The notes under the pieces: generated by a model
Database searches by the model: none
What the model saw: only the letters and a program-made list of their open reading frames with translations
What the model was told of the DNA's origin: nothing
Part shown: positions 10,733 to 26,739 of the stretch, one piece after another
Position numbering within the stretch: position 1 is the first letter of the stretch
How the letters are laid out: each line of letters opens with the position of its first letter
Program-made: the position numbers and the translations under genes
DNA from: Chryseobacterium ureilyticum
GTDB lineage: Bacteria > Bacteroidota > Bacteroidia > Flavobacteriales > Weeksellaceae
DNA length: 64,000 nt
Assembly (NCBI RefSeq): GCF_900156735.1
Contig: NZ_FTOL01000001.1
Coordinates: 310,001-374,000, forward strand
Direction: 5' to 3'

Positions 10733-10749
10733 TACTTTCCGATACAAAA
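10733..10749. repeat. Left attachment-site copy (17-bp direct repeat)
   Basis: TACTTTCCGATACAAAA is identical to 25355-25371, the last bases of mnmE (FCIGK codons plus two bases of the stop). This is the duplicated core left by site-specific integration. Confidence 0.85.
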
Positions 10750-10873: not shown

Positions 10874-12631
10874 TTATTCACTTTCCTCGAATAACATTAC
10901 TCTCCACATATCAGGAAAATATGGTGTTTTATAATGAAAATGCGCAAGGTCTCTTAAAAAACTATATCCAGCTTTATCTGTTCTATACTCATATTCAAAC
11001 TCATCCTTCCTTTTCAATAACTTTTCTTTGAACTCTTGAAAATTAATATCAGCATTTAATTCAAAGTTTTCATAATCTACTTTAGATATTTTCAAATCTG
11101 ATTGATAACCATCGTTTACAGATTTTGAAAATAATTGTTCATCCAAATCCAGTTCTTTTTCCTCTATCAAATGTAAAGATTTAGAGTGTTTATTAAGATG
11201 AGGTACAAACAATCCCAAATCAATTTGATTATCATTTATAAATTTTTTCATAATTGAAAATCTATCCTCAATTCCTAATATTACCAAGTATTCCATTATT
11301 ACATTTAAAAGTGGGGAAGTAGAATCTGAATAATATATTGGTTTAACTCTCGATTCTGTAAATTTTATTACACTTGCAATACTATTATTAGCATCGGGTA
11401 AAATTTTATAATCCCTATGCCTTAATGTAATATAACCACATACTTCTATCAAATATTTTTTTGCTGATTCTATATCGTTAAGTGCAATAAAGAAGTTCAA
11501 AACACTTATTATCGTTTGGGAATGAATATCAATTAAGGGTCTTACTGAAACATTGTTTACTCGCAAAATTTCCGCTAAAATATTTCGAGCAATATTTTTA
11601 TCAAAATTTGGATTGAATAATATTGATAGTTTAAGATAATGCGTTAAATAGAAAATATAATCAAAAGTTCTAACAGTATAACCTATTTGTTCATATCTCC
11701 CACCTGTTTCACAAAATAAGCCGTCTTTCAATTTTGCTATCGGCAAAGTCCTAAAGAAGTATTCATCCAATAAATCGTAATAAAAAAGAAATATTTGATT
11801 ATAGTAGAACAATATCTTTTTATCATTCTCCAGTTTGTTTTTAAGAATCCAAAACCAAAATCTGATTACAACAAAAGAAATATATTTTTTTGCTATTTCT
11901 AAATTGTTGTATTCTTTTGATTCGGTATATATTATAAAAGATATTAATTTTAAAGATTGAAAAATAAGTTTCCATTTTCTTGGGATTACAGTTTTGTATC
12001 CTTTCCAAACCTCATCAAACAATAAAGCATTAACAAGCAATTCGAAATCATTTTGAATATCATCATTTACATTTAGATTAATAAGAACCTTGTTAAAAAG
12101 TTTTGTATTCTTTTTATTGGTCAAAAGATTAACCCCAAACAAATCTTCCGAAAAGAGTTTTGTAAGTTCTGAAATACCCCATCTTTCGAATTCTATATTT
12201 CCGCCTTCTGGAAATTCTTGCTTTATAAATCCATCAAATGTTTCGGAAATATTGGCTTTCATTTCTCCATTATGAACCAAAACAAGTTTCAAGGGTAGAT
12301 TATAGAAATTCTTTCGGGAAGTAATAAATTCTCTATGTTTTGCTTCTCGTAAAGATTCAACAATTCCGTCTTTTTTATGAAAAGTAGTAGTAGTTACATC
12401 TCTATCTTCCCCGCCTTTTATCTCAAAATAAAATCGTTTTAGTATTCCGTCTTCATCTTTTCCAACTGCAACTACATCTTTTCCGTACTGAGGGAAGCCT
12501 TTATATTCTTTGGGTTTTGAAAGAATAGTGAATCCTTTTGATTCTAAAAGTATTGGAAAAAGTGAATCTAATTCATCGCTTTCAGTCAATGATTCTAAAT
12601 ATTCTCGAACAATGATTGGTTTAATATCCAT
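10874..12631 (-). CDS. PD-(D/E)XK nuclease-like protein, probable defence effector
   Basis: 585 residues. The first 110 residues look like a restriction-endonuclease fold: LFPILLESKGF helix, then GKD (Asp52) and FEIKGG (Glu70-Ile-Lys72), the D...ExK catalytic pattern. The remaining 430 residues are helical and rich in Leu/Ile/Phe with no recognised domain. The start codon overlaps the stop of the upstream 627-residue gene by one base (TAATG on the minus strand), so the two are translationally coupled. I infer a two-gene anti-phage or restriction-like system: nuclease plus helical sensor/scaffold. I do not match it to a named system. It is the last gene before the left attachment site. Confidence 0.7.
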   Translation of the reverse strand: MDIKPIIVREYLESLTESDELDSLFPILLESKGFTILSKPKEYKGFPQYGKDVVAVGKDEDGILKRFYFEIKGGEDRDVTTTTFHKKDGIVESLREAKHREFITSRKNFYNLPLKLVLVHNGEMKANISETFDGFIKQEFPEGGNIEFERWGISELTKLFSEDLFGVNLLTNKKNTKLFNKVLINLNVNDDIQNDFELLVNALLFDEVWKGYKTVIPRKWKLIFQSLKLISFIIYTESKEYNNLEIAKKYISFVVIRFWFWILKNKLENDKKILFYYNQIFLFYYDLLDEYFFRTLPIAKLKDGLFCETGGRYEQIGYTVRTFDYIFYLTHYLKLSILFNPNFDKNIARNILAEILRVNNVSVRPLIDIHSQTIISVLNFFIALNDIESAKKYLIEVCGYITLRHRDYKILPDANNSIASVIKFTESRVKPIYYSDSTSPLLNVIMEYLVILGIEDRFSIMKKFINDNQIDLGLFVPHLNKHSKSLHLIEEKELDLDEQLFSKSVNDGYQSDLKISKVDYENFELNADINFQEFKEKLLKRKDEFEYEYRTDKAGYSFLRDLAHFHYKTPYFPDMWRVMLFEESE

Positions 12632-14514
12632 TAATTATCATATTTGCTTTTATCTGAATTTAAGATATATTCATATAAATCGGGGTTTTTATATGTTCTA
12701 CCGTCTAAATAAACGGAGTACTGATGACCGGTTAAAGCTCCCACATTGTCTTGCCCGTCTGATTTCCAAGCATTACCTCTTACAATAACATTTGTTTTTC
12801 CTAAATGTTCTAAAAAAGTCCCTTTACCATCTTTTATTTCTTCCATCATCTTTGCTTGATTTTCGTGTTCCAATCTATAGTATAAGTCCATCAAATTACT
12901 TTCATTATGATGAGGTGACAGGTCATTGATTTTACCTTTAAACTCACACATTTTATTGTAACTATCTAAAATTTGGGTGAAATATTTTTTTAATTTTTTA
13001 TCCGAATTTGAATTGGTTAATTGGCTTACAATAATGTTATAAATATATTCGTGATAGGCTTCAAAAATCAATCTTCCCAAAGTCAATCTACATTCTTCTT
13101 TAACGGATTTATAATTCGAATTTCTTAATTGTAATAGAAAAGGGACTGTTTTTTCAATGCTGTGAGGGAATCGTTCAAAACCTTCTATTGTTCTTAATTG
13201 TCCTATTTCCGAATCAACATTTAAGGCATTTATAGGAAAAATGCCCATTAAAAGCAAATGTATTCCACCCAATCTTAGTATAATGCTTTCGGTTGATAGA
13301 AATTCCAAAATATATTTTTCTGTTTCTATTCTATTTGTCTTCCAAAAGTTTCTTATTCCGTATTTAAATAATGATAAGTTTGTTCTAAACTCCAATTTAC
13401 TATAGGCAAATTGAAATAAATGAAAGTAATATTTCGGATCTTTGAATTTGTCAAAATAATGTTCTATTATTCTAATGTTCTTTGTTGTATTTAGGATATG
13501 ATGTAAAAAATTGTACCTTTCATATTCAAATCCATCAATATCTCTTATTAAAATGTGTATAATCCAACCTCTAATATTTTCGTCATTTTTATCAAAATAT
13601 TCGTAGAGTTTTTCAAACACTTTATTTTTTATTTCTTCCGAATCTGATTTTATTTTTAATAACTTTCCATAAAATTGAACTATTTCAGAACCACAAAGAT
13701 TGTTCTCTAGTTCTATTTTTTCAACAAAAGTAATAGCAGTTTTCAAGTCATCATCATTCTGATAGTCTATGTCCGCAAGAAAATTTATCAAAATTTTTGG
13801 ATGAATTTCAAAAACTTCAAATGCTTTTTTAAAAATCGTATGGTCTTGTTTATATAAATTGGAAAGAATAATTTTTTGCAAATATTTGAATGATAAATCG
13901 AATTCATCACCTCTCCAATATTCTACAAGTTCATTTGCGAAAATTGGTTTTTTCTCACAAATTTGATTAGCATATTGAGTTGTGTAAAACCTATGAATTT
14001 CGTCATTAATAGAATGTTTTATAGCTTTACTGATAGTTTCTTTATCAGTTTCTAGCTTTAATTGTGCATTATAATAGTGTTTCTCATAATCATAAAGATG
14101 CTTTTCTTGGTCACGCCCTTCTTCGGTTAAATTCAATAAAAATTGAGTAATTTCTTTACCATTACTATTACGTTTAGCCAAAACAAAAGCAGCGAAATTT
14201 TCTATGATTATATTATAAGAATTTGCAAATGGAGCATTATTAATCTTTTTTATTTCTTCATGAAAACTTTGACAAAATAAAAGTGAATCAGAAATTTCGC
14301 TAGGAAACTTTAAGTTTAAAATACTTTCAGCATAACTAATTAAATATTCAAAAATTAAATCCGTTTTAAGATTAACAGTTAGAAAATTTCCTTCTTTAAT
14401 TAAAATGTTTTCTTTAATTAGTTGCTCCTTATTCTGAATATCTTTATTACAAAACTGTAATTTATCATATTTAAAAATTAAGTCAAAAAGCTCTTTAATA
14501 TCGAATCTCATCAA
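12631..14514 (-). CDS. Large helical protein, partner of the nuclease
   Basis: 627 residues, starting at the ATG at 14514 (a second ATG is the next codon). No family recognised. The sequence is almost entirely amphipathic helix and reads like HEAT/ARM-type repeats (residues about 150-520), then a C-terminal segment of about 80 residues with a different character (TNVIVRGNAWKSDGQDNVGA, HQYSVYLDGRTY), probably a small beta domain. It is the first gene of a minus-strand pair and is coupled to the nuclease gene by a 1-bp overlap. It diverges from the DUF3800/RT unit over 152 bp. A sensor or regulatory role is inferred only from the pairing. Confidence 0.6.
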   Translation of the reverse strand: MMRFDIKELFDLIFKYDKLQFCNKDIQNKEQLIKENILIKEGNFLTVNLKTDLIFEYLISYAESILNLKFPSEISDSLLFCQSFHEEIKKINNAPFANSYNIIIENFAAFVLAKRNSNGKEITQFLLNLTEEGRDQEKHLYDYEKHYYNAQLKLETDKETISKAIKHSINDEIHRFYTTQYANQICEKKPIFANELVEYWRGDEFDLSFKYLQKIILSNLYKQDHTIFKKAFEVFEIHPKILINFLADIDYQNDDDLKTAITFVEKIELENNLCGSEIVQFYGKLLKIKSDSEEIKNKVFEKLYEYFDKNDENIRGWIIHILIRDIDGFEYERYNFLHHILNTTKNIRIIEHYFDKFKDPKYYFHLFQFAYSKLEFRTNLSLFKYGIRNFWKTNRIETEKYILEFLSTESIILRLGGIHLLLMGIFPINALNVDSEIGQLRTIEGFERFPHSIEKTVPFLLQLRNSNYKSVKEECRLTLGRLIFEAYHEYIYNIIVSQLTNSNSDKKLKKYFTQILDSYNKMCEFKGKINDLSPHHNESNLMDLYYRLEHENQAKMMEEIKDGKGTFLEHLGKTNVIVRGNAWKSDGQDNVGALTGHQYSVYLDGRTYKNPDLYEYILNSDKSKYDN

Positions 14515-14666: not shown

Positions 14667-15401
14667 ATGTCAGGAAAAAATTTTTATTACTTTATAGATG
14701 AAAGTGGGCATATTAATAATAATCAAGATATATTCTTATTTGGGTGTATTAAGACCGACACTCCAATATTAAGCGAAGAGACGATTGAAGCTCTTAGAGA
14801 AGAATTAAAAAGTGAATTATATTTTGAAGATTATCAAGATGCCCTAAATAATCCTTTTCATGCAGTGGATGACCATCCTGATGTAAGAACTGCATTTTAT
14901 AAAATAATACCATTTTTAAATTTTAGAGCTTTCTTTGAAGTCATTATAAAAAAAACAAAATATTTTAGTGACTTAAAAGCTAATAAAAATGACCATGAGA
15001 TAATTAAAGAAATGATTAGGAGATTAATTAGACCTCGTGTTTTGTTAAATCCAACTGATAAACATATTATCTTTATAGAAACTTTAGAGGTTGAAAATAA
15101 ATCCCTAAAAATAATTGTAGATGAAATAAAGACTGAATTTACTAATATTGATATAGAAATTACAATTTTAGACAAAGGAAATCATAATTTATCTTTAATT
15201 GATTATTTAAATTATATAATTTTTAATATTTTTGAAAAGGATAAAAAAAAGTTTGAAAAAAATCTGAGACAACAACAGAATTTTAATATTATTAAAGAAA
15301 AAATTGCTTTAATTCACATTTGGAATTCTGATGAATACTTTAGCAGAAGGTCATCCGAAATTAGTTTAGATAATTTAAGAAAAATTTTGGAGGAAGAGTG
15401 A
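14667..15401 (+). CDS. DUF3800 protein, retron accessory/effector
   Basis: 244 residues. It begins with the DUF3800 hallmark: a FYYFIDESG strand (Asp11-Glu12-Ser13-Gly14), and ends with a helical part containing an IHIWNSDEYF segment, compatible with the RNase H-like fold proposed for the family. As I recall the published retron classification, DUF3800 is the partner of type VII retrons, and here it lies directly upstream of a retron RT on the same strand (79 bp). The role is probably a toxic nuclease-like effector held in check by the RT and its reverse-transcribed DNA; that is inference. Its stop codon lies inside the 5' arm of the leader hairpin of the RT. A TAACTTTA -7-like box is at about 14648. 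Confidence 0.8.
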   Translation: MSGKNFYYFIDESGHINNNQDIFLFGCIKTDTPILSEETIEALREELKSELYFEDYQDALNNPFHAVDDHPDVRTAFYKIIPFLNFRAFFEVIIKKTKYFSDLKANKNDHEIIKEMIRRLIRPRVLLNPTDKHIIFIETLEVENKSLKIIVDEIKTEFTNIDIEITILDKGNHNLSLIDYLNYIIFNIFEKDKKKFEKNLRQQQNFNIIKEKIALIHIWNSDEYFSRRSSEISLDNLRKILEEE

Positions 15402-15470
15402 GGGTAATTATAGAATATGATTCCGTATTCGATTGGAAATAAACATTTACTTCTTACCTCATCTTCCTCC
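15389..15470 (+). ncRNA. Inverted-repeat leader of the retron RT, 82 nt
   Basis: GGAGGAAGAgTGAGGgTAA (15389-15407) pairs with TTACCTCATCTTCCTCC (15454-15470), 17 base pairs with two bulged G. The arms close a 47-nt loop containing a small TTCC/GGAA stem and CCGTATTCGATT. The 5' arm overlaps the last codons of the DUF3800 gene; the 3' arm ends 10 bases before the RT ATG. This is where a retron a1/a2 repeat would be expected, but 82 nt is shorter than known msr-msd RNAs. It may instead control RT translation. Confidence 0.4.
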
Positions 15471-15480
15471 GTTTATTAAT

Positions 15481-16506
15481 ATGAATCCACAAATTATTAC
15501 TGACACTAAACAATTAAGCAACGCTCTAAGAATTAATGAGGAAAGTCTTAATGAATTATCACAAAATGAATATTTAATTGATGACACGTGTGCAAAGACA
15601 TTTAACTTACATCCCGATAGTATTTTAAATTTAAAAAAATTCTGCATTCCTAAGAGAAATAAAAAGTTTGGTGAAAGGGAAGTTTATGAACCTATTGCAG
15701 AAACCTTAAAAAATTTGTTAAAAGTAACTAATTCTGGACTAAATAAAGTTTATGTAGCTCCAACCTCTGTACATGGTTTTGTAAAAGGAAAAAACATTCG
15801 AACAAACGCAACACCTCATCTCGAGAAAAAATATTTATTATCTATTGATATCGAGAATTTCTTTGAATCAATTAATAAAGAAATGGTTATTAATTGTTTT
15901 AAAGAATATGAATTTATAGAATCAATTGCCAAAGTATTAGCGAATATAACAACTGTGGATAATAAATTAATTCAAGGATTTCATACAAGTCCTACAATTG
16001 CCAATATGTATTTCAAAAAAATTGATTTAATTTTTGAAACAGTATTTCCTAATCTTACTTATTCTAGATATGCTGATGATTTATCGTTTTCTTCCAATGA
16101 AGAAATAACTGTGACACAAGTTACAGACATAATAAAGATTATAAATGATTTTGGTTTTAGTATAAATCATGATAAAACCAAAATTATGAAAAGAGGGAGA
16201 AATCAATATGTAACTGGTCTCACTATTTTTGATGGTACACTCCCACGAGTTCCCAAAAGAATAAAAAGGAAATTAAGATTACAAATATTTTATATTAATA
16301 AGTACGGGTATAGGAATCATATATTAAAAAAATTAGGACGTAAACCGCACGAATATTTCAAAAATTCAAGAGTAAAGGAAAGTGTAGATTCATATGAGGA
16401 TTATTTACATAATAATATTGTAGGTTGGCTTATGTATATAAAATCTATAGAACCACAATTTGCGGCACTTCATCTAGAATTATTAAATAATAGAAGAAGA
16501 GATTAA
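15481..16506 (+). CDS. Retron-type reverse transcriptase
   Basis: 341 residues from the ATG at 15481 (an in-frame TTG at 15433 lies within the leader hairpin and is less likely). Retron signatures are visible: NATPH at 109-113 (NAxxH motif of region X), motif A with Asp123 (SIDIENFFESI), a TSP motif (HTSPTIANMYF), the catalytic YADD at 197-200, and YVTGL at 243-247 (VTG motif) followed by a basic RVPKRIKRKLR helix. Length is normal for a stand-alone retron RT. With the DUF3800 gene upstream it forms an operon ending at the hairpin terminator at 16533. No standard msr-msd gene is seen directly upstream; see the leader hairpin and the structured region at 17.3 kb. Confidence 0.92.
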   Translation: MNPQIITDTKQLSNALRINEESLNELSQNEYLIDDTCAKTFNLHPDSILNLKKFCIPKRNKKFGEREVYEPIAETLKNLLKVTNSGLNKVYVAPTSVHGFVKGKNIRTNATPHLEKKYLLSIDIENFFESINKEMVINCFKEYEFIESIAKVLANITTVDNKLIQGFHTSPTIANMYFKKIDLIFETVFPNLTYSRYADDLSFSSNEEITVTQVTDIIKIINDFGFSINHDKTKIMKRGRNQYVTGLTIFDGTLPRVPKRIKRKLRLQIFYINKYGYRNHILKKLGRKPHEYFKNSRVKESVDSYEDYLHNNIVGWLMYIKSIEPQFAALHLELLNNRRRD

Positions 16507-16577: not shown

Positions 16578-17180
16578 TTACCAATTATTGCTTTTTGCCG
16601 TCTCATTTTGATTATAAATATAATCGTGTAGATTTTGATTTAAAGAATTAATATATCTTGCGATTTTTGGCATAGTATCTTTATACTGGTCACGAACTTC
16701 TCCATTACTTTTAAAATTCATCCAACCTTTTTTAAATGTAATTTCACTCCAACCTATAATATTTCCATATTTACTTGTCTCTGCACTTTCCAATTTCACA
16801 ACATCAAACTTATATTTTCCATCCTTTACAGAAATTTCAATTTCATATCGTATGTCTTCACAAATCAAAACCATTGGTTTCCTGCAATATCCTTTTGATT
16901 CTAAACCCTGAAAACGGATATAATTATTTTCCACTTGTGCTTTTATCACTTCGTTCGGCTTGTTATAGGTCTTATTAATCCATTCGACTATTTTTTTATA
17001 AAGTTCTTCTCTTGCTTTTCCTTCACAGGGAATAACAATAAAGTCAGTCAATTGTTGTTCATTATTAACTATAAATTCCGTTGGGGAGGGTGTTTCTGTG
17101 GGATTTGCTTCCTGCGAAAATACATTGTTGGAAAATACTAAAAATAACAGCGTATAAAAAGCATAGTTTCTTCGTTTCAT
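16578..17180 (-). CDS. Secreted DUF4468-like protein
   Basis: 200 residues with a signal peptide (residues 1-22, ending NNVFSQ). The mature part (KAREELYKKIVEWINKTYN, then alternating strands, then a YEIEISVKDGKYKF strand pair) resembles DUF4468 proteins, which are predicted to have a TBP-like fold and are found in Bacteroidota envelopes. An acidic/proline linker (PTETPSPTE) precedes the domain. It is convergent with the RT gene and is preceded upstream by the structured noncoding tract. Why an exported domain protein sits among element cargo is unclear. Confidence 0.65.
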   Translation of the reverse strand: MKRRNYAFYTLLFLVFSNNVFSQEANPTETPSPTEFIVNNEQQLTDFIVIPCEGKAREELYKKIVEWINKTYNKPNEVIKAQVENNYIRFQGLESKGYCRKPMVLICEDIRYEIEISVKDGKYKFDVVKLESAETSKYGNIIGWSEITFKKGWMNFKSNGEVRDQYKDTMPKIARYINSLNQNLHDYIYNQNETAKSNNW

Positions 17181-17322
17181 AATTTTTGTCTTTATATTGT
17201 TAAGTTTGAATTATTTTGTGAAAAGCAAATAAAGTATTTTGCACAAAACATCCCTACGGAAAACCATAATTGACAAAGGAATAATGTAAAATACTTTTAT
17301 CATTTTAAAAAGTTATTCTACC

Positions 17323-17527
17323 AGTTCCGAAAGTAGAGGTTATCACAATGCAAAAGGTACGGAACTAAAGCCAGTCTGCTACTGAGGTACTGCGAAGAAC
17401 CCAAAAGACAAGAAAGACTTAGCCCGTACCAGTAATTAGGCACGGGCGTAAGTCTATCGAGTTTTGTCTTTTTGAAGATTCGCAGTTTTCAGTAGCCAAA
17501 ACGATAGCTTACGCTTGTGTAATCGTT
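17323..17527. ncRNA. Strongly structured block, candidate RNA or msr-msd
   Basis: Three hairpins in series: AGTTCCG (17323-17329) with CGGAACT (17360-17366); a 119-nt interrupted hairpin from 17378 to 17496; and AACGAT with ATCGTT (17500-17527). The long hairpin has five co-linear stems: GCTACTGA/TCAGTAGC, CTGCGAA/TTCGCAG, AAAAGACAA/TTGTCTTTT, AGACTTA/TAAGTCT and GCCCGT/ACGGGC, separated by internal loops. The order small stem then long hairpin resembles an msr-msd region, but it lies 0.8 kb beyond the RT behind a terminator. A replication origin structure for the Rep-like protein is the main alternative. Confidence 0.45.
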
Positions 17528-17694
17528 AAAATTAATGTTCCAAATTTAGCATTTTTTTTAATATTTTTTGATCCTATCAGAAAATATTAAAAAAATATAT
17601 TCCCTTTTGTAATGTTAATTTTTTTGCATGTGTTTTTAATATTGATGATGAATTTTTATCCAATGATCTGATCTATAATCGAAATGATATTAAG

Positions 17695-18182
17695 ACCGTA
17701 TTCGATTTTCAAACATGGGCGAAACAGCGTTTTAAACCATGTTCGATTTCATGTTATGGGCTAGAATGCATTGTGAACCGTATTCGATTTTCAAACATGG
17801 GCGAAACAGCGTTTTAAACCATGTTCGATTTCATGTTATGGACTAGAATGCATTGTGAACTGTATTCGATTTTCAAACATGGGCGAAACAGCGTTTTAAA
17901 CCATGTTCGATTTCATGTTATGGGCTAGAATGCATTGTGAACCGTATTCGATTTTCAAACATGGGCGAAACAGCGTTTTAAACCATGTTCGATTTCATGT
18001 TATGGACTAGAATGCATTGTGAACCGTATTCGATTTTCAAACATGGGCGAAACAGCGTTTTAAACCATGTTCGATTTCATGTTATGGGCTAGAATGCATT
18101 GTGAACCGTATTCGATTTTCAAACATGGGCGAAACAGCGTTTTAAACCATGTTCGATTTCGTGTTATGGACTAGAATGCATT
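17695..18182. repeat. Six-copy 82-bp tandem array
   Basis: Copies begin at 17695, 17777, 17859, 17941, 18023 and 18105; the last is cut 4 bases short. They are almost identical; odd copies read TATGGGCTAG and even copies TATGGACTAG, so the array is really three 164-bp dimers. Each 82-bp unit is itself a diverged pair of 41-bp halves (both ACC..T.TTCGATTT....ATGGGC). Each unit has the dyad AACATGG/CCATGTT and the palindrome AATGCATT. All frames have stops. There are no unique spacers, so it is not CRISPR. Confidence 0.95.
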
Positions 18183-23390: not shown

Positions 23391-24548
23391 TTACAAATCT
23401 AATTTTATTTTATCTGCGGCATTTCGCTTCTTCTCATCAACTATTTTAGCATAAATCTGCGTTGTTTTCAAATTTTTATGTCCTAACATTTTGGAAACTG
23501 TGTAAATATCTGTTCCGTTATAAAGCTGCAAAGTTGCAAACGTATGGCGAAAATTATGAAAGGATATTTTTTTTGTTATTCCAGCTTCTAAAATCCATTT
23601 TGCTAATTGTTTGTTGTGATAAGCTGAATAAGTTAGATTCTCAAAAACGTTTTTGTTTTGCTCCATCTCTTTGGGGTTTTCACTACCTTTCGTTAGATTG
23701 TACGCTTGTTCTGAAATTGGATAGACTTCAACACCTTTAGTTTTTTTATGATCAAAATTAATAAAGTAGCCTTGTCCATTTATATACTCCATCTCCCTCC
23801 AAACCATTTTTTTCACATCTGAAAATCGTAATCCTGTCAATGCAGAAAATAATACTGCCCGTTTATACAAATCATTTTTAAAAGGCGTTTTTACCAATTC
23901 GTTAAGTTCTTCAATAGTAAGATACTCTCTTCGGGTCTCTTCGGGTTTTATGGGGCTAATTTTAGCATTGAGGTCGGTTTGTAAAATCCCATCTTTAAAA
24001 GCCTGTTTTAGTGTTGCCTTGATTTTGTTAAAATATGAAACTGCTGAATTCCGAGAAAGAATTGCTTTATCACTTTTTTTGCTTTTGGTGGTTAGTAGAA
24101 AATCTTTGAAATCTTCTAAAACAGATTCGTTAAGGTCGACAAATTTTAAATTCCCATCAGTAAACGTTTCGAGATAATAAAGCGCAGAAATCCAGTTATC
24201 ATAATTACTTGCTTTACGTTTATTTGCCAACTTTTGGAAATATTCAACAAAATTTATTTCTCCTTGTTCTTTAATTTTCAGTTGTTGCTTTTCATACTCG
24301 CTGTATATCTCAGGTTTATTCAAAAGGTTTTCTCGTTTTTGTCTTATGCTTTCAGCAATCTTTATCGTTTCAGAATTATGCTGCTTATCTATTACTGCTC
24401 TAGCTTTATCAATAACATAAAGCCCTAAAAATTCTCTACGAGTCGGCTTCCCAGTTTTTGGATGTGGTATTGCTGGATAAAAATCTAAATAAAGACTTTT
24501 ACGCCCCTTAGAAATAAGCTTATCTCTTAGTGTAACTTTGGTTATCAT
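23391..24548 (-). CDS. Tyrosine site-specific integrase
   Basis: 385 residues. An N-terminal arm-binding domain (1-90) precedes a SAM-like core-binding domain (95-200) and the catalytic domain. Catalytic residues are visible: Arg241 (TGLRFSD), His331 and Arg334 (HNFRHTFA), His357 (MLGHKNL) and nucleophile Tyr366 (QIYAKI). The type is the Bacteroidota phage-integrase family with SAM-like domain. Together with the 17-bp repeat it explains insertion in the mnmE 3' end. It is the second gene from the right attachment site, in the expected position for the integrase. Confidence 0.95.
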   Translation of the reverse strand: MITKVTLRDKLISKGRKSLYLDFYPAIPHPKTGKPTRREFLGLYVIDKARAVIDKQHNSETIKIAESIRQKRENLLNKPEIYSEYEKQQLKIKEQGEINFVEYFQKLANKRKASNYDNWISALYYLETFTDGNLKFVDLNESVLEDFKDFLLTTKSKKSDKAILSRNSAVSYFNKIKATLKQAFKDGILQTDLNAKISPIKPEETRREYLTIEELNELVKTPFKNDLYKRAVLFSALTGLRFSDVKKMVWREMEYINGQGYFINFDHKKTKGVEVYPISEQAYNLTKGSENPKEMEQNKNVFENLTYSAYHNKQLAKWILEAGITKKISFHNFRHTFATLQLYNGTDIYTVSKMLGHKNLKTTQIYAKIVDEKKRNAADKIKLDL

Positions 24549-25353: not shown

Positions 25354-26739
25354 TTACTTTCCGATACAAAACTTAGAGAAAATATTTCCTAATACCTCAT
25401 CATTTGTCACTTCTCCGGAAATTTCACCGAGATGCTCTAATGCATTTCTTAATTCATATGCCAGTAATTCAGTAGAAATCTGGAAAGAAATAGCTTCTTT
25501 TACTTTATTTACAGCATCCAATGATTTTTGAAGTGCTTCAAAATGACGTTGATTAGTAATCACAACATTATTCTCCTCAGATTTTAAATGCTCAACATAA
25601 GATGATAATTCATTTTTTAAATCCTGAATGTTTTGATTTTCAACAGCTGATATTTTAATGAAGTCAAACTCATGAGAAATAGCAGTTCTGAAGATATCTT
25701 CTACAGCCTCATATTTTGTAGGAGTAACCTCATCAATCTTTGTAGCACAGATAATTAATTTCAGATCTTCTCTCAATAAAGATTGGATCATCTCAATATC
25801 TTCAGCAAAATCTTCCGTAGCAGCATCCGCCAGATATACTAGGATATTGGCATTTTCTACCTTTTCCTTAGCTTTTTTCACCCCAATGGCTTCAATTTCA
25901 TCTACAGTTTCACGTAAACCTGCAGTATCGATTAGACGAAAAGCATGACCTTTAATATGAAGAATTTCTTCAATAGTATCTCTTGTAGTTCCGGCGATAT
26001 TACTTACAATAGCTCTTTCCTCCTTTAGTAAAGCGTTCAGTAGGGTAGATTTTCCGGCATTGGGTTTTCCGATGATAGCTACTGCTGTTCCGTTCTTAAT
26101 GGCATTTCCATATTGGAAGCTTTCAATAAGAGAGATCAGTTTATGATCAATTTTATCCAGTAATCCGCTTAAAGCAGTTCTGTCTGCAAACTCTACATCT
26201 TCTTCAGCGAAATCTAGTTCCAGCTCTATCAGTGAAACAAAATTCAATAAGTCAGTTCTTAATAAAGATATTTCGTTGGTAATTCCACCCTTCAATTGAT
26301 TGATTGCTACCTTTCTAGAGGCTTCGTTTTCAGACGCAATTACATCAGCAATGGCTTCCGCCTGGGAAAGGTCAATTCTCCCATTAATAAAAGCACGAAG
26401 GGTAAATTCTCCAGCTTTAGCCATTCTTGCGCCATTTTTAATAAGAGTCTCAAGAATACGTTTTCCAATATGTGGTGAACCGTGAAAAGCAATCTCTACA
26501 GAATTTTCTGTAGTGAAACTCTTCGGAGCCAGGAAAATCGAAAGCATAACCTCATCAATAGCTTCCTCACCATCCATAAAATATCCGTAATGAATAGTAT
26601 GAGACTTCTGTTTTTCCAGTTTTTTTGTTGGAAAACTCTTCTGAACTATTGGTAAAGCATCATCTCCTGATACTCTGATAATGCCTAAGGCACCTATTCC
26701 ATTGGCTGTAGCCAGTGCACAAATGGTATCGTTATTCAT
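25354..26739 (-). CDS. mnmE: tRNA modification GTPase MnmE
   Basis: 461 residues, full length. The N-terminal folate-binding domain (ICALATANGIGALGIIRVSG) precedes helices and a GTPase domain with G1 GKPNAGKST (about residues 222-230), G3 DTAGLRE and a CATKID G4-like motif, ending in the conserved C-terminal FCIGK whose Cys is needed for activity. MnmE with MnmG modifies the wobble uridine of certain tRNAs. The 3' end is the integration site of the element to its left, and the reading frame is intact. Transcription reads toward the element; a new hairpin terminator lies 44 bp downstream. Confidence 0.97.
   Translation of the reverse strand: MNNDTICALATANGIGALGIIRVSGDDALPIVQKSFPTKKLEKQKSHTIHYGYFMDGEEAIDEVMLSIFLAPKSFTTENSVEIAFHGSPHIGKRILETLIKNGARMAKAGEFTLRAFINGRIDLSQAEAIADVIASENEASRKVAINQLKGGITNEISLLRTDLLNFVSLIELELDFAEEDVEFADRTALSGLLDKIDHKLISLIESFQYGNAIKNGTAVAIIGKPNAGKSTLLNALLKEERAIVSNIAGTTRDTIEEILHIKGHAFRLIDTAGLRETVDEIEAIGVKKAKEKVENANILVYLADAATEDFAEDIEMIQSLLREDLKLIICATKIDEVTPTKYEAVEDIFRTAISHEFDFIKISAVENQNIQDLKNELSSYVEHLKSEENNVVITNQRHFEALQKSLDAVNKVKEAISFQISTELLAYELRNALEHLGEISGEVTNDEVLGNIFSKFCIGK
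25355..25371. repeat. Right attachment-site copy, within mnmE 3' end
   Basis: TACTTTCCGATACAAAA encodes on the minus strand the FCIGK C-terminus of MnmE and two bases of its stop. It is identical to 10733-10749. The base just outside differs between the copies (C versus T), so 17 bp is the exact core length. Confidence 0.85.

What the first reader, a model, noticed from the sequence alone, without database searches (positions are those of the whole stretch)
17323..17527. 119-nt interrupted hairpin block, displaced msr-msd or origin
Five co-linear stems (8, 7, 9, 7 and 6 bp) form one long hairpin at 17378-17496, flanked by two short hairpins. The block has more G and C than its neighbours. A small stem followed by a long hairpin is the usual order in msr-msd RNAs, yet the block is 0.8 kb beyond the RT and behind a terminator. 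It could be a trans-acting retron RNA, an origin structure for the Rep-like protein, or a separate regulatory RNA.
Basis: partly seen in the sequence, partly recalled or inferred. Interest (0 to 1): 0.72.

Follow-up and report, generated by a model that had tools for sequence, protein, structure and literature searches.

The report
Unlisted bacterial RNA switch family
The hairpin block is most likely not a retron part but one copy of a conserved folded RNA, found many times over in Chryseobacterium, Flavobacterium and relatives, that can fold in two mutually exclusive ways in front of genes for surface, secreted and mobile-element proteins and probably switches them.

Summary
The block is real and well beyond chance, but is read from the other strand: an RNA core at 17515-17352 (minus), with a promoter box at 17548-17541. 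The same RNA is in 138 of 171 genomes of the genus, 194 of 320 of the family and 63 of 395 sampled across the phylum; this genome has nine copies. Rfam 15 does not match it.

Compensatory changes support the long hairpin and two helices that compete with it. Of segments 1-2-3-4, pairs 1:2, 2:3 and 3:4 are all kept, in 72 copies and 21 held-out ones. Segment 4 ends in a U-rich run.

Best reading: a cis-acting leader that can form a long hairpin or a terminator-like fold. Transcription, switching and signal are untested; an independent small RNA is the main rival.

The retron (type VII-A2) has its own candidate RNA between DUF3800 and RT, so "displaced msr-msd" is not supported; "separate regulatory RNA" is. 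Copies do lie near RTs more often than near control places (7 of 43 within 3 kb against 0 of 40), unexplained.

The parts
17541..17548 (-). TAAATTTG, a TAnnTTTG promoter box (-7 box of Bacteroidota, recalled); start of transcription near 17534 is inferred
   Evidence: sequence; TAnnTTTG within 70 nt upstream in 56 of 72 copies against 113 of 2780 control windows; 16 of 21 held-out copies
17352..17515 (-). conserved RNA core (whole model R1)
   Evidence: 180 bits, E 1e-41 in own genome; 72 copies aligned
17502..17515 (-). segment 1 (AGCGTAAGCTATCG), pairs with segment 2
   Evidence: 1:2 98.5% of cells paired; z -13.3 on 72 copies
17460..17497 (-). 5' arm of the long hairpin (outer stem, S1, S2)
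   Evidence: pairs with change on both sides: outer 6 of 8, S1 4 of 8, S2 7 of 8
17439..17459 (-). segment 2, pairs with 1 or with 3
17416..17430 (-). segment 3, pairs with 2 or with 4
   Evidence: 2:3 z -12.7, 3:4 z -16.2
17378..17415 (-). 3' arm of the long hairpin (S2, S1, outer stem)
17356..17370 (-). segment 4, pairs with 3; also complementary to the loop of hairpin 5
   Evidence: 3:4 96.4% of cells paired, 5 of 11 pairs with change on both sides
17345..17355 (-). U-rich stretch directly after segment 4 (TTTTGCATTGT), terminator-like
   Evidence: at least 3 T in the 5 nt at the core's end in 68 of 72 copies, at least 4 in 48 of 72
17317..17337 (-). hairpin 5, loop complementary to segment 4
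   Evidence: loop match of 6 or more in 31 of 72 copies, 5.8% of 360 shuffled stretches
16578..17180 (-). next same-strand gene of size: secreted DUF4468 protein, candidate regulated gene, starts 171 nt after the core
   Evidence: Pfam DUF4468 E 7e-8; offset; DUF4468 also in the first gene of a second locus (L015 by eye)

Best explanation
The block encodes one copy of a phylum-wide RNA family that acts as a 5' leader (cis-acting RNA switch). RNA polymerase starts at the TAnnTTTG promoter. Segment 1 first pairs with segment 2. Once segment 3 appears, 2:3 plus the arms zip into the long hairpin, which leaves segment 4 free and should allow read-through into the downstream gene. If something holds 1:2 together or blocks the arms, segment 3 is free to pair with segment 4, giving a stem followed by U-rich sequence: a terminator-like fold that should stop transcription. 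In a subset, segment 4 can instead pair with the loop of a small hairpin before the start codon. Shown by sequence: conservation, strand, promoter box, orientation to the next gene, covariation of all the competing helices. Inferred: transcription, termination, the direction of the switch, and any signal.
For: Long hairpin with 2:3: 93.1% of cells paired, 20 of 39 pairs with change on both sides, 0 of 500 shuffles; slid versions 34-41%. With 1:2 and 3:4 instead of 2:3: 95.1%, 24 of 48 pairs, 181 double-changed cells against a shuffled mean of 60.5. Own against other copies' segments, 72 copies: z -13.3 (1:2), -12.7 (2:3), -16.2 (3:4), own better than the median of others in 99, 100 and 100%; 21 held-out copies z -6.6, -6.4, -7.2. 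Prefix folds: 1:2 in 72 of 72 when segment 2 is out; 2:3 in 71 of 72 when 3 is out (1:2 still in 22); full length 2:3 in 69 of 72; fragment 3-4 alone gives 3:4 in 72 of 72. At least 8 bp of 1:2 and 3:4 in 72 and 72 of 72, against means of 27.3 and 37.6 with shuffled segments and 55.2 and 60.5 with segments swapped between groups. First downstream ORF co-directional in 68 of 71 (lenient rule). ATG with an open frame of 30 codons or more at 40-60 nt in 31 of 93, other 20-nt bins 6-12. A TAnnTTTG box in the 200 nt after the core: 0 of 41 divergent copies, 86 of 674 control windows.
Against: No transcript data were available. Full-length folds strongly favour the long hairpin (mean -64.1 against -50.3 kcal/mol for the 1-2 and 3-4 fragments); 3:4 appears in only 3 of 72 full folds, so a 3:4 terminator would need active help. 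In the window the next gene of size starts 171 nt downstream; in the close-homologue group the first ORF is 169 nt or more away in 24 of 31. 10 of 31 close homologues have a TAnnTTTG box in the 200 nt after the core, which fits an independent small RNA. The 3' U-rich run is short in many copies. Downstream genes share no single family, so no ligand can be guessed. Copies are enriched near retron-type RTs, which this model does not explain. Repeated protein-binding sequences could mimic part of the chain of pairs.
Confidence: 0.58

Rival explanations
1. Independent trans-acting small RNA: transcribed from its own promoter, ending at the U-rich run after segment 4, refolding into the long hairpin and acting on other mRNAs or a protein; multi-copy like the FopS family of Bacteroides.
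For: Own promoter box; 10 of 31 close homologues have a second box after the core, 8 of them with a palindrome before it; first ORF 169 nt or more away in 24 of 31 of that group; nine copies in this genome.
Against: In divergent copies the start codon often sits at 40-60 nt and no TAnnTTTG box lies in the 200 nt after the core; orientation to the next ORF is kept in 68 of 71.
Confidence: 0.2
2. c4-like antisense leader: segment 4 acts mainly on the loop of hairpin 5 near the start codon to control translation, rather than on transcription termination.
For: Loop match of 6 or more to segment 4 in 31 of 72 copies against 5.8% of 360 shuffled stretches; matching changes by eye in L084, L007 and L015 and L197.
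Against: Some of the 31 are chance hairpins; own mean 5.42 against 4.80 with other copies' segment 4; weaker than 3:4 (z -6.9 against -16.2); no Rfam c4 match.
Confidence: 0.1
3. DNA-level element: single-strand or rolling-circle origin, transfer origin or recombination site that works as folded DNA.
For: Copies lie beside integrase (L131), resolvase (L135) and relaxase (L049) genes; the window copy is on a 14.6-kb island.
Against: G-U cells exceed A-C by 123 to 25 on one strand, 76 to 3 in helix 2:3, which folded DNA would not need; promoter box and orientation; copies before RHS, SusC/D or lipoprotein genes.
Confidence: 0.06
4. Part of a retron or RT system: msr-msd displaced or supplied in trans, or another RNA partner of RTs.
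For: With 8 kb flanks, 10 of 43 RT places have a copy and 7 within 3 kb (window, G016, G056 and 4 of 40 others), against 3 of 20 integrase and 0 of 20 shifted places, none within 3 kb. Confidence raised from 0.04 to 0.06 for this.
Against: 33 of 43 RT places have none within 8 kb; strand and side vary (6 of the 7 near ones on the strand opposite to the RT, 5 upstream and pointing away); RT hits among L001-L090 only at the window itself; the type VII-A2 RT has its own paired candidate RNA.
Confidence: 0.06

Closest known systems
Transcription attenuators with 1-2-3-4 segments (trp type; recalled)
   Same: Four segments; 1:2, 2:3 and 3:4 mutually exclusive; 3:4 followed by U's; upstream promoter and downstream gene
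   Different: Segments 1-2 and 3-4 are separated by long complementary arms that make 2:3 a 120-nt hairpin; no shared leader peptide noticed (not searched systematically); many copies before unrelated genes
c4 antisense RNA of P1/P7-type phages (Rfam RF01695; mechanism recalled, name seen in passages of PMC2864571)
   Same: Leader-borne RNA with complementarity to a site near the downstream start codon
   Different: No Rfam match here; only a subset of copies has the complementary loop
FopS paralogous sRNA family of Bacteroides thetaiotaomicron (PMC11697453: abstract and passages)
   Same: Multi-copy RNA family in Bacteroidota linked to SusC genes
   Different: FopS is a single-stranded 5' stretch plus a terminator hairpin and acts by base pairing on mRNAs; the paper says it was deposited in Rfam, and Rfam gives no match here
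Flavo-1 and 6S-flavo motifs (Rfam RF01705, RF01685; seen in passages of PMC2864571)
   Same: Bacteroidota structured RNAs
   Different: No match in the Rfam scans
Retron type VII-A2 ncRNA
   Same: Close to the DUF3800+RT pair in three loci
   Different: Opposite strand; a separate candidate RNA is present in the gene gap

Membership tests
Retron msr-msd RNA | Located with, and on the same strand as, a retron RT | tested here: not met
   Opposite strand here and in G016, G056; 28 of 30 RT loci have no copy within 1.5 kb, 33 of 43 none within 8 kb
Retron msr-msd RNA | It is the only candidate ncRNA of the RT | tested here: not met
   Paired candidate RNA 15389-15470 in the DUF3800-RT gap, also in L160 and L161
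Retron msr-msd RNA | Branched msDNA product | not testable with these tools
   needs an experiment
Any Rfam 15 family | Covariance model match at gathering score | tested here: not met
   0 matches in the window; best E 0.55 in 17250-17650, under gathering scores; none at E up to 1 in six homologous loci
Transcription attenuator | Mutually exclusive 1:2, 2:3, 3:4 helices kept in evolution | tested here: met
Transcription attenuator | U-run directly after the 3:4 stem | tested here: inconclusive
   at least 3 T of 5 in 68 of 72, at least 4 in 48 of 72; a full U-run only in some copies
Transcription attenuator | Same-strand gene downstream, transcribed from the leader promoter | tested here: inconclusive
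   co-directional 68 of 71 (lenient), start at 40-60 nt in 31 of 93, but a second promoter box in 10 of 31 close homologues
Transcription attenuator | Regulated termination in response to a signal | not testable with these tools
   needs in vitro transcription
c4 antisense RNA | Complementarity of the RNA to a site near the downstream start codon | tested here: inconclusive
   31 of 72 by the loop test
c4 antisense RNA | Rfam RF01695 model match | tested here: not met
Replication origin | Linked to a Rep gene | tested here: not met
   Rep-like ORF 1.25 kb away in the window (no Pfam family); by eye, few of the loci read have one; no family search for Rep genes was run on them

The most novel reading that the evidence does not exclude
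A phylum-wide, horizontally spread RNA switch class with mutually competing, covariation-supported helices (plus a loop contact in a subset) that gates expression of newly acquired surface, toxin-like and mobile-element genes in Bacteroidota in response to one common, still unknown factor, and that is drawn into the islands where retron-type RTs live.
Probability: 0.33. Interest if true: 0.85.

Novelty: new variant of a known kind. Interest (0 to 1): 0.68.

Why it matters
If true, Bacteroidota carry an unlisted, multi-copy RNA regulator placed before RHS-type proteins, SusC/D operons, lipoproteins and mobile-element genes: a common control layer for acquired surface genes. The 1-2-3-4 layout makes direct predictions that compensatory mutants can test, and covariance models built here can find it in other genomes.

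Tried and rejected
Retron RNA: disfavoured on strand, on the lack of a constant place next to RTs, and because the RT has its own candidate RNA; the enrichment near RTs stays unexplained. Replication origin or recombination site: disfavoured by the G-U bias, promoter and context. Known RNA families: no Rfam match over the block; the retron stretch gave one sub-threshold chance-like match. FopS: different architecture. Plasmid and phage collections: no DNA match to the block (blastn words of 11 only, no covariance model was run on them). Literature: the searches listed no paper that I recognised as describing this RNA (listings only, apart from PMC11697453, PMC2864571 and PMC9723704, of which I saw passages, and the abstract of the first). 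The Flavobacterium psychrophilum transcriptome (PMC9723704, passages) reports 64 structured 5' regions and 85 newly described RNAs in tables I did not see, and PMC8040213 (listing and start of abstract only) reports thousands of candidate motifs; either may include copies. A shared downstream gene family was sought and not found: 65 first genes (of 72 copies; one had no same-strand ORF of 100 aa within 700 nt), largest groups 11 (SBBP beta-propeller lipoprotein), 5 (SusC/RagA, Plug), 4 (CarbopepD_reg_2; T9SS sorting domain). A common 4:5 helix was sought in all copies; it holds only in a subset. Geometry argument (not computed): 1:2 and 3:4 are unlikely to coexist with the fully zipped arms. 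The downstream-ORF count accepted plus-strand ORFs from 60 aa and minus-strand ORFs from 100 aa, which favours co-direction; in the 20 loci, scanned with one 80-aa limit, the next downstream ORF is on the plus strand in all 20.

Full report
The long interrupted hairpin at 17378-17497 folds far better than shuffled sequence on both strands (z -6.4 plus, -7.15 minus; 0 of 200 shuffles as good). A DNA search of the genus found the block in 72 of 173 genomes, with a core of about 190 nt. In a pattern scan of named genomes the 29 matching records are Chryseobacterium and Flavobacterium (exact match to a narrow pattern).

Strand. Aligning 30 homologues (A1) showed that the conserved unit reads on the minus strand. 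A TAnnTTTG box (the -7 box of Bacteroidota promoters, recalled) lies within 70 nt upstream in 56 of 72 copies, median 32 nt before the core, against 113 of 2780 control windows. Across all helices 123 cells are G-U on the minus strand and 25 are A-C, which would be G-U on the plus strand. In the window the box is at 17548-17541 and the core at 17515-17352.

Structure. Outer stem, S1 and S2 show many compensatory changes: with the apical 2:3 stem, 93.1% of 1168 cells pair, 20 of 39 pairs have a change on both sides, 0 of 500 shuffles reach these values, and slid versions pair in 34-41%. Two further helices that cross this hairpin are also kept: 1:2 (98.5% of cells, 2 of 13 pairs with change on both sides, 8 never vary) and 3:4 (96.4%, 5 of 11); whole set 95.1%, 24 of 48 pairs. 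The apical 2:3 helix varies mostly through G-U (76 of 450 cells; 3 of 14 pairs of its main part with change on both sides), as expected if segment 3 must also follow segment 4.

Test without a helix-specific alignment. For 72 copies (A3) I compared the duplex energy of a copy's own segments with that of segments from other copies: 1:2 -16.4 against -11.4 (z -13.3), 2:3 -24.1 against -18.2 (z -12.7), 3:4 -23.0 against -16.3 (z -16.2); own better than the median of others in 99, 100 and 100%. Within the 31 close homologues alone the z values are -5.7, -4.7 and -8.4. Model R1 contains 2:3 but neither 1:2 nor 3:4, so those two are not built in. On 21 copies not used in building model R2 (25 matches, 4 dropped because already in A3) the results hold: at least 8 bp of 1:2 in 21 of 21, of 3:4 in 21 of 21, of 2:3 in the full fold in 20 of 21; z -6.6, -6.4, -7.2. 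Some held-out copies are close relatives of training copies (L204 and L088 begin alike).

Order of folding (minimum-energy folds of prefixes): when segment 2 is complete, 1:2 is present in 72 of 72; when segment 3 is complete, 2:3 in 71 of 72 (1:2 still in 22); the full RNA has 2:3 in 69 of 72 and 3:4 in 3 of 72; the 3-to-4 fragment alone gives 3:4 in 72 of 72. The full fold is on average 14 kcal/mol better than the two fragments 1-2 and 3-4, so 3:4 would need the long hairpin to be blocked. Controls: with shuffled segments 1 and 4, at least 8 bp formed in means of 27.3 (1:2) and 37.6 (3:4) of 72; with segments swapped between the two groups, 55.2 and 60.5; real 72 and 72. Segment 4 is followed by T-rich sequence: at least 3 T in 5 nt in 68 of 72, all 5 in 10.

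Hairpin 5. After the core many copies have a small hairpin whose loop is complementary to segment 4 (window 17337-17317). A run of 6 or more in a hairpin loop occurs in 31 of 72 copies and in 5.8% of 360 shuffled stretches; mean run 5.42, 4.80 with other copies' segment 4, 4.25 shuffled. Some of the 31 are chance hairpins. The general 4:5 signal is weaker (z -6.9, own better in 72%).

Context. In the 20 loci the next downstream ORF is on the RNA's strand in all 20. In the 72-copy set it is 68 of 71 (with a more lenient limit for plus-strand ORFs; L158 had none; L137, L138 and L159 are opposite). An ATG with 30 or more open codons lies 40-60 nt after the core in 31 of 93 copies, against 6-12 of 93 in other 20-nt bins. 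A TAnnTTTG box in the 200 nt after the core: 0 of 41 divergent copies, 10 of 31 close homologues, 86 of 674 control windows. Among 65 first downstream genes no family is common to most: SBBP beta-propeller lipoprotein 11, SusC/RagA 5, T9SS sorting domain 4, DUF4468 2, TM2 2. By a simple rule 39 of 65 have a signal-peptide-like start, against 17 of 81 control ORFs that were not matched for length. Family scans of ten neighbours confirm RHS repeats (L037; L048 only below the cut-off), a T9SS tail (L048), DUF4280 (L163), SusD (L161), a divergent HTH gene (L168), a resolvase (L135), an integrase (L131) and a relaxase (L049); one neighbour in L163 had none. Other labels of neighbours are by eye.

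Distribution. Model R1: 138 of 171 genomes of the genus, 194 of 320 of the family in 19 of 33 genera, 69 of 395 of the order in 16 of 108 genera. Model R2: 63 of 395 across the phylum in 32 of 170 genera. The order and phylum samples include genomes of the same genus and family. The own genome gives ten matches at E up to 0.01: nine places and the reverse complement of the block itself. Plasmid and phage collections gave no blastn match. The large searches use stricter filters, so they are lower bounds.

The retron. PADLOC names 14667-15401 DUF3800_VII (E 3e-90) and 15433-16506 RT_VII-A2 (E 9e-118). The gap between them folds as a terminal stem with an inner hairpin (15389-15470); the two closest relatives (L160, L161) have the same layout with different, still paired sequence. 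That is a natural place for the retron RNA (recalled; not shown by experiment).

Copies near RTs. This check goes partly against my reading. Of 43 RT places in the genus, 10 have a copy within about 8 kb: the three DUF3800+RT loci (RT-to-RNA gaps 0.85, 1.2 and 1.6 kb) and 7 of the 40 others (1.8, 2.3, 2.5, 2.8, 6.2, 7.0 and 7.5 kb). Seven of 43 are within 3 kb. Controls: 3 of 20 integrase places (each about 7.5 kb away) and 0 of 20 shifted places in the same genomes. With 9 copies in 5.18 Mb one would expect at most about 1.3 of 43 within 8 kb. In 6 of the 7 near cases the RNA is on the strand opposite to the RT, and in 5 it lies upstream and points away. I read this as shared islands rather than a retron RNA, but it is not explained and I raised the rival's odds for it.

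The island. The window copy sits on a 14.6-kb element between 17-bp direct repeats at 10733-10749 and 25355-25371 (the 3' end of mnmE), with an integrase at 23391-24548, OloA and OloB, the retron, and the RNA with a DUF4468 gene.

Known or not. Rfam 15 has no match. FopS (PMC11697453, abstract and passages) differs in structure. The F. psychrophilum transcriptome paper (PMC9723704, passages) reports structured 5' regions and new RNAs in tables that I did not see, so an earlier sighting of single copies is possible. My searches of the paper library listed no paper that I recognised as describing the family.

Verdict. A real, widely conserved RNA family with competing helices; most likely a cis-acting leader switch (0.58), with an independent small RNA as the main rival (0.2). 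The displaced msr-msd and origin readings are not supported.

Noticed in passing
15389-15470 (+): Candidate ncRNA of the type VII-A2 retron in the DUF3800-RT gap: terminal stem plus inner hairpin, with compensatory changes in L160 and L161.
   Followed up: partly
L234-L273, L160, L161 and window: Copies of the RNA near retron-type RTs: 10 of 43 RT places within 8 kb and 7 within 3 kb, against 3 of 20 integrase and 0 of 20 shifted places within 8 kb and none within 3 kb.
   Followed up: partly
10733-10749 and 25355-25371 (-): 17-bp direct repeat TTTTGTATCGGAAAGTA at the 3' end of mnmE and 14.6 kb away: likely att sites of an integrated island with OloA/OloB and a retron.
   Followed up: partly
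17695-18182: Six 82-bp tandem repeats, 98% matches, between the RNA promoter and the Rep-like ORF; role unknown.
   Followed up: no
10874-14514 (-): Matches to OloB and OloA of PADLOC (Olokun anti-phage system, name recalled) beside the retron.
   Followed up: no
downstream of the RNA in close homologues, for example L021, L029: Palindrome CGACA-N-TGTCG: in 9 of 31 close homologues within 200 nt after the RNA, 8 of these also with a TAnnTTTG box, 3 of 674 control windows; possible operator.
   Followed up: partly
window about 17303-17210 (-), L014, L015, L007: Short open frames starting about 48 nt after the RNA core, perhaps remains of a lost downstream gene; read by eye.
   Followed up: no
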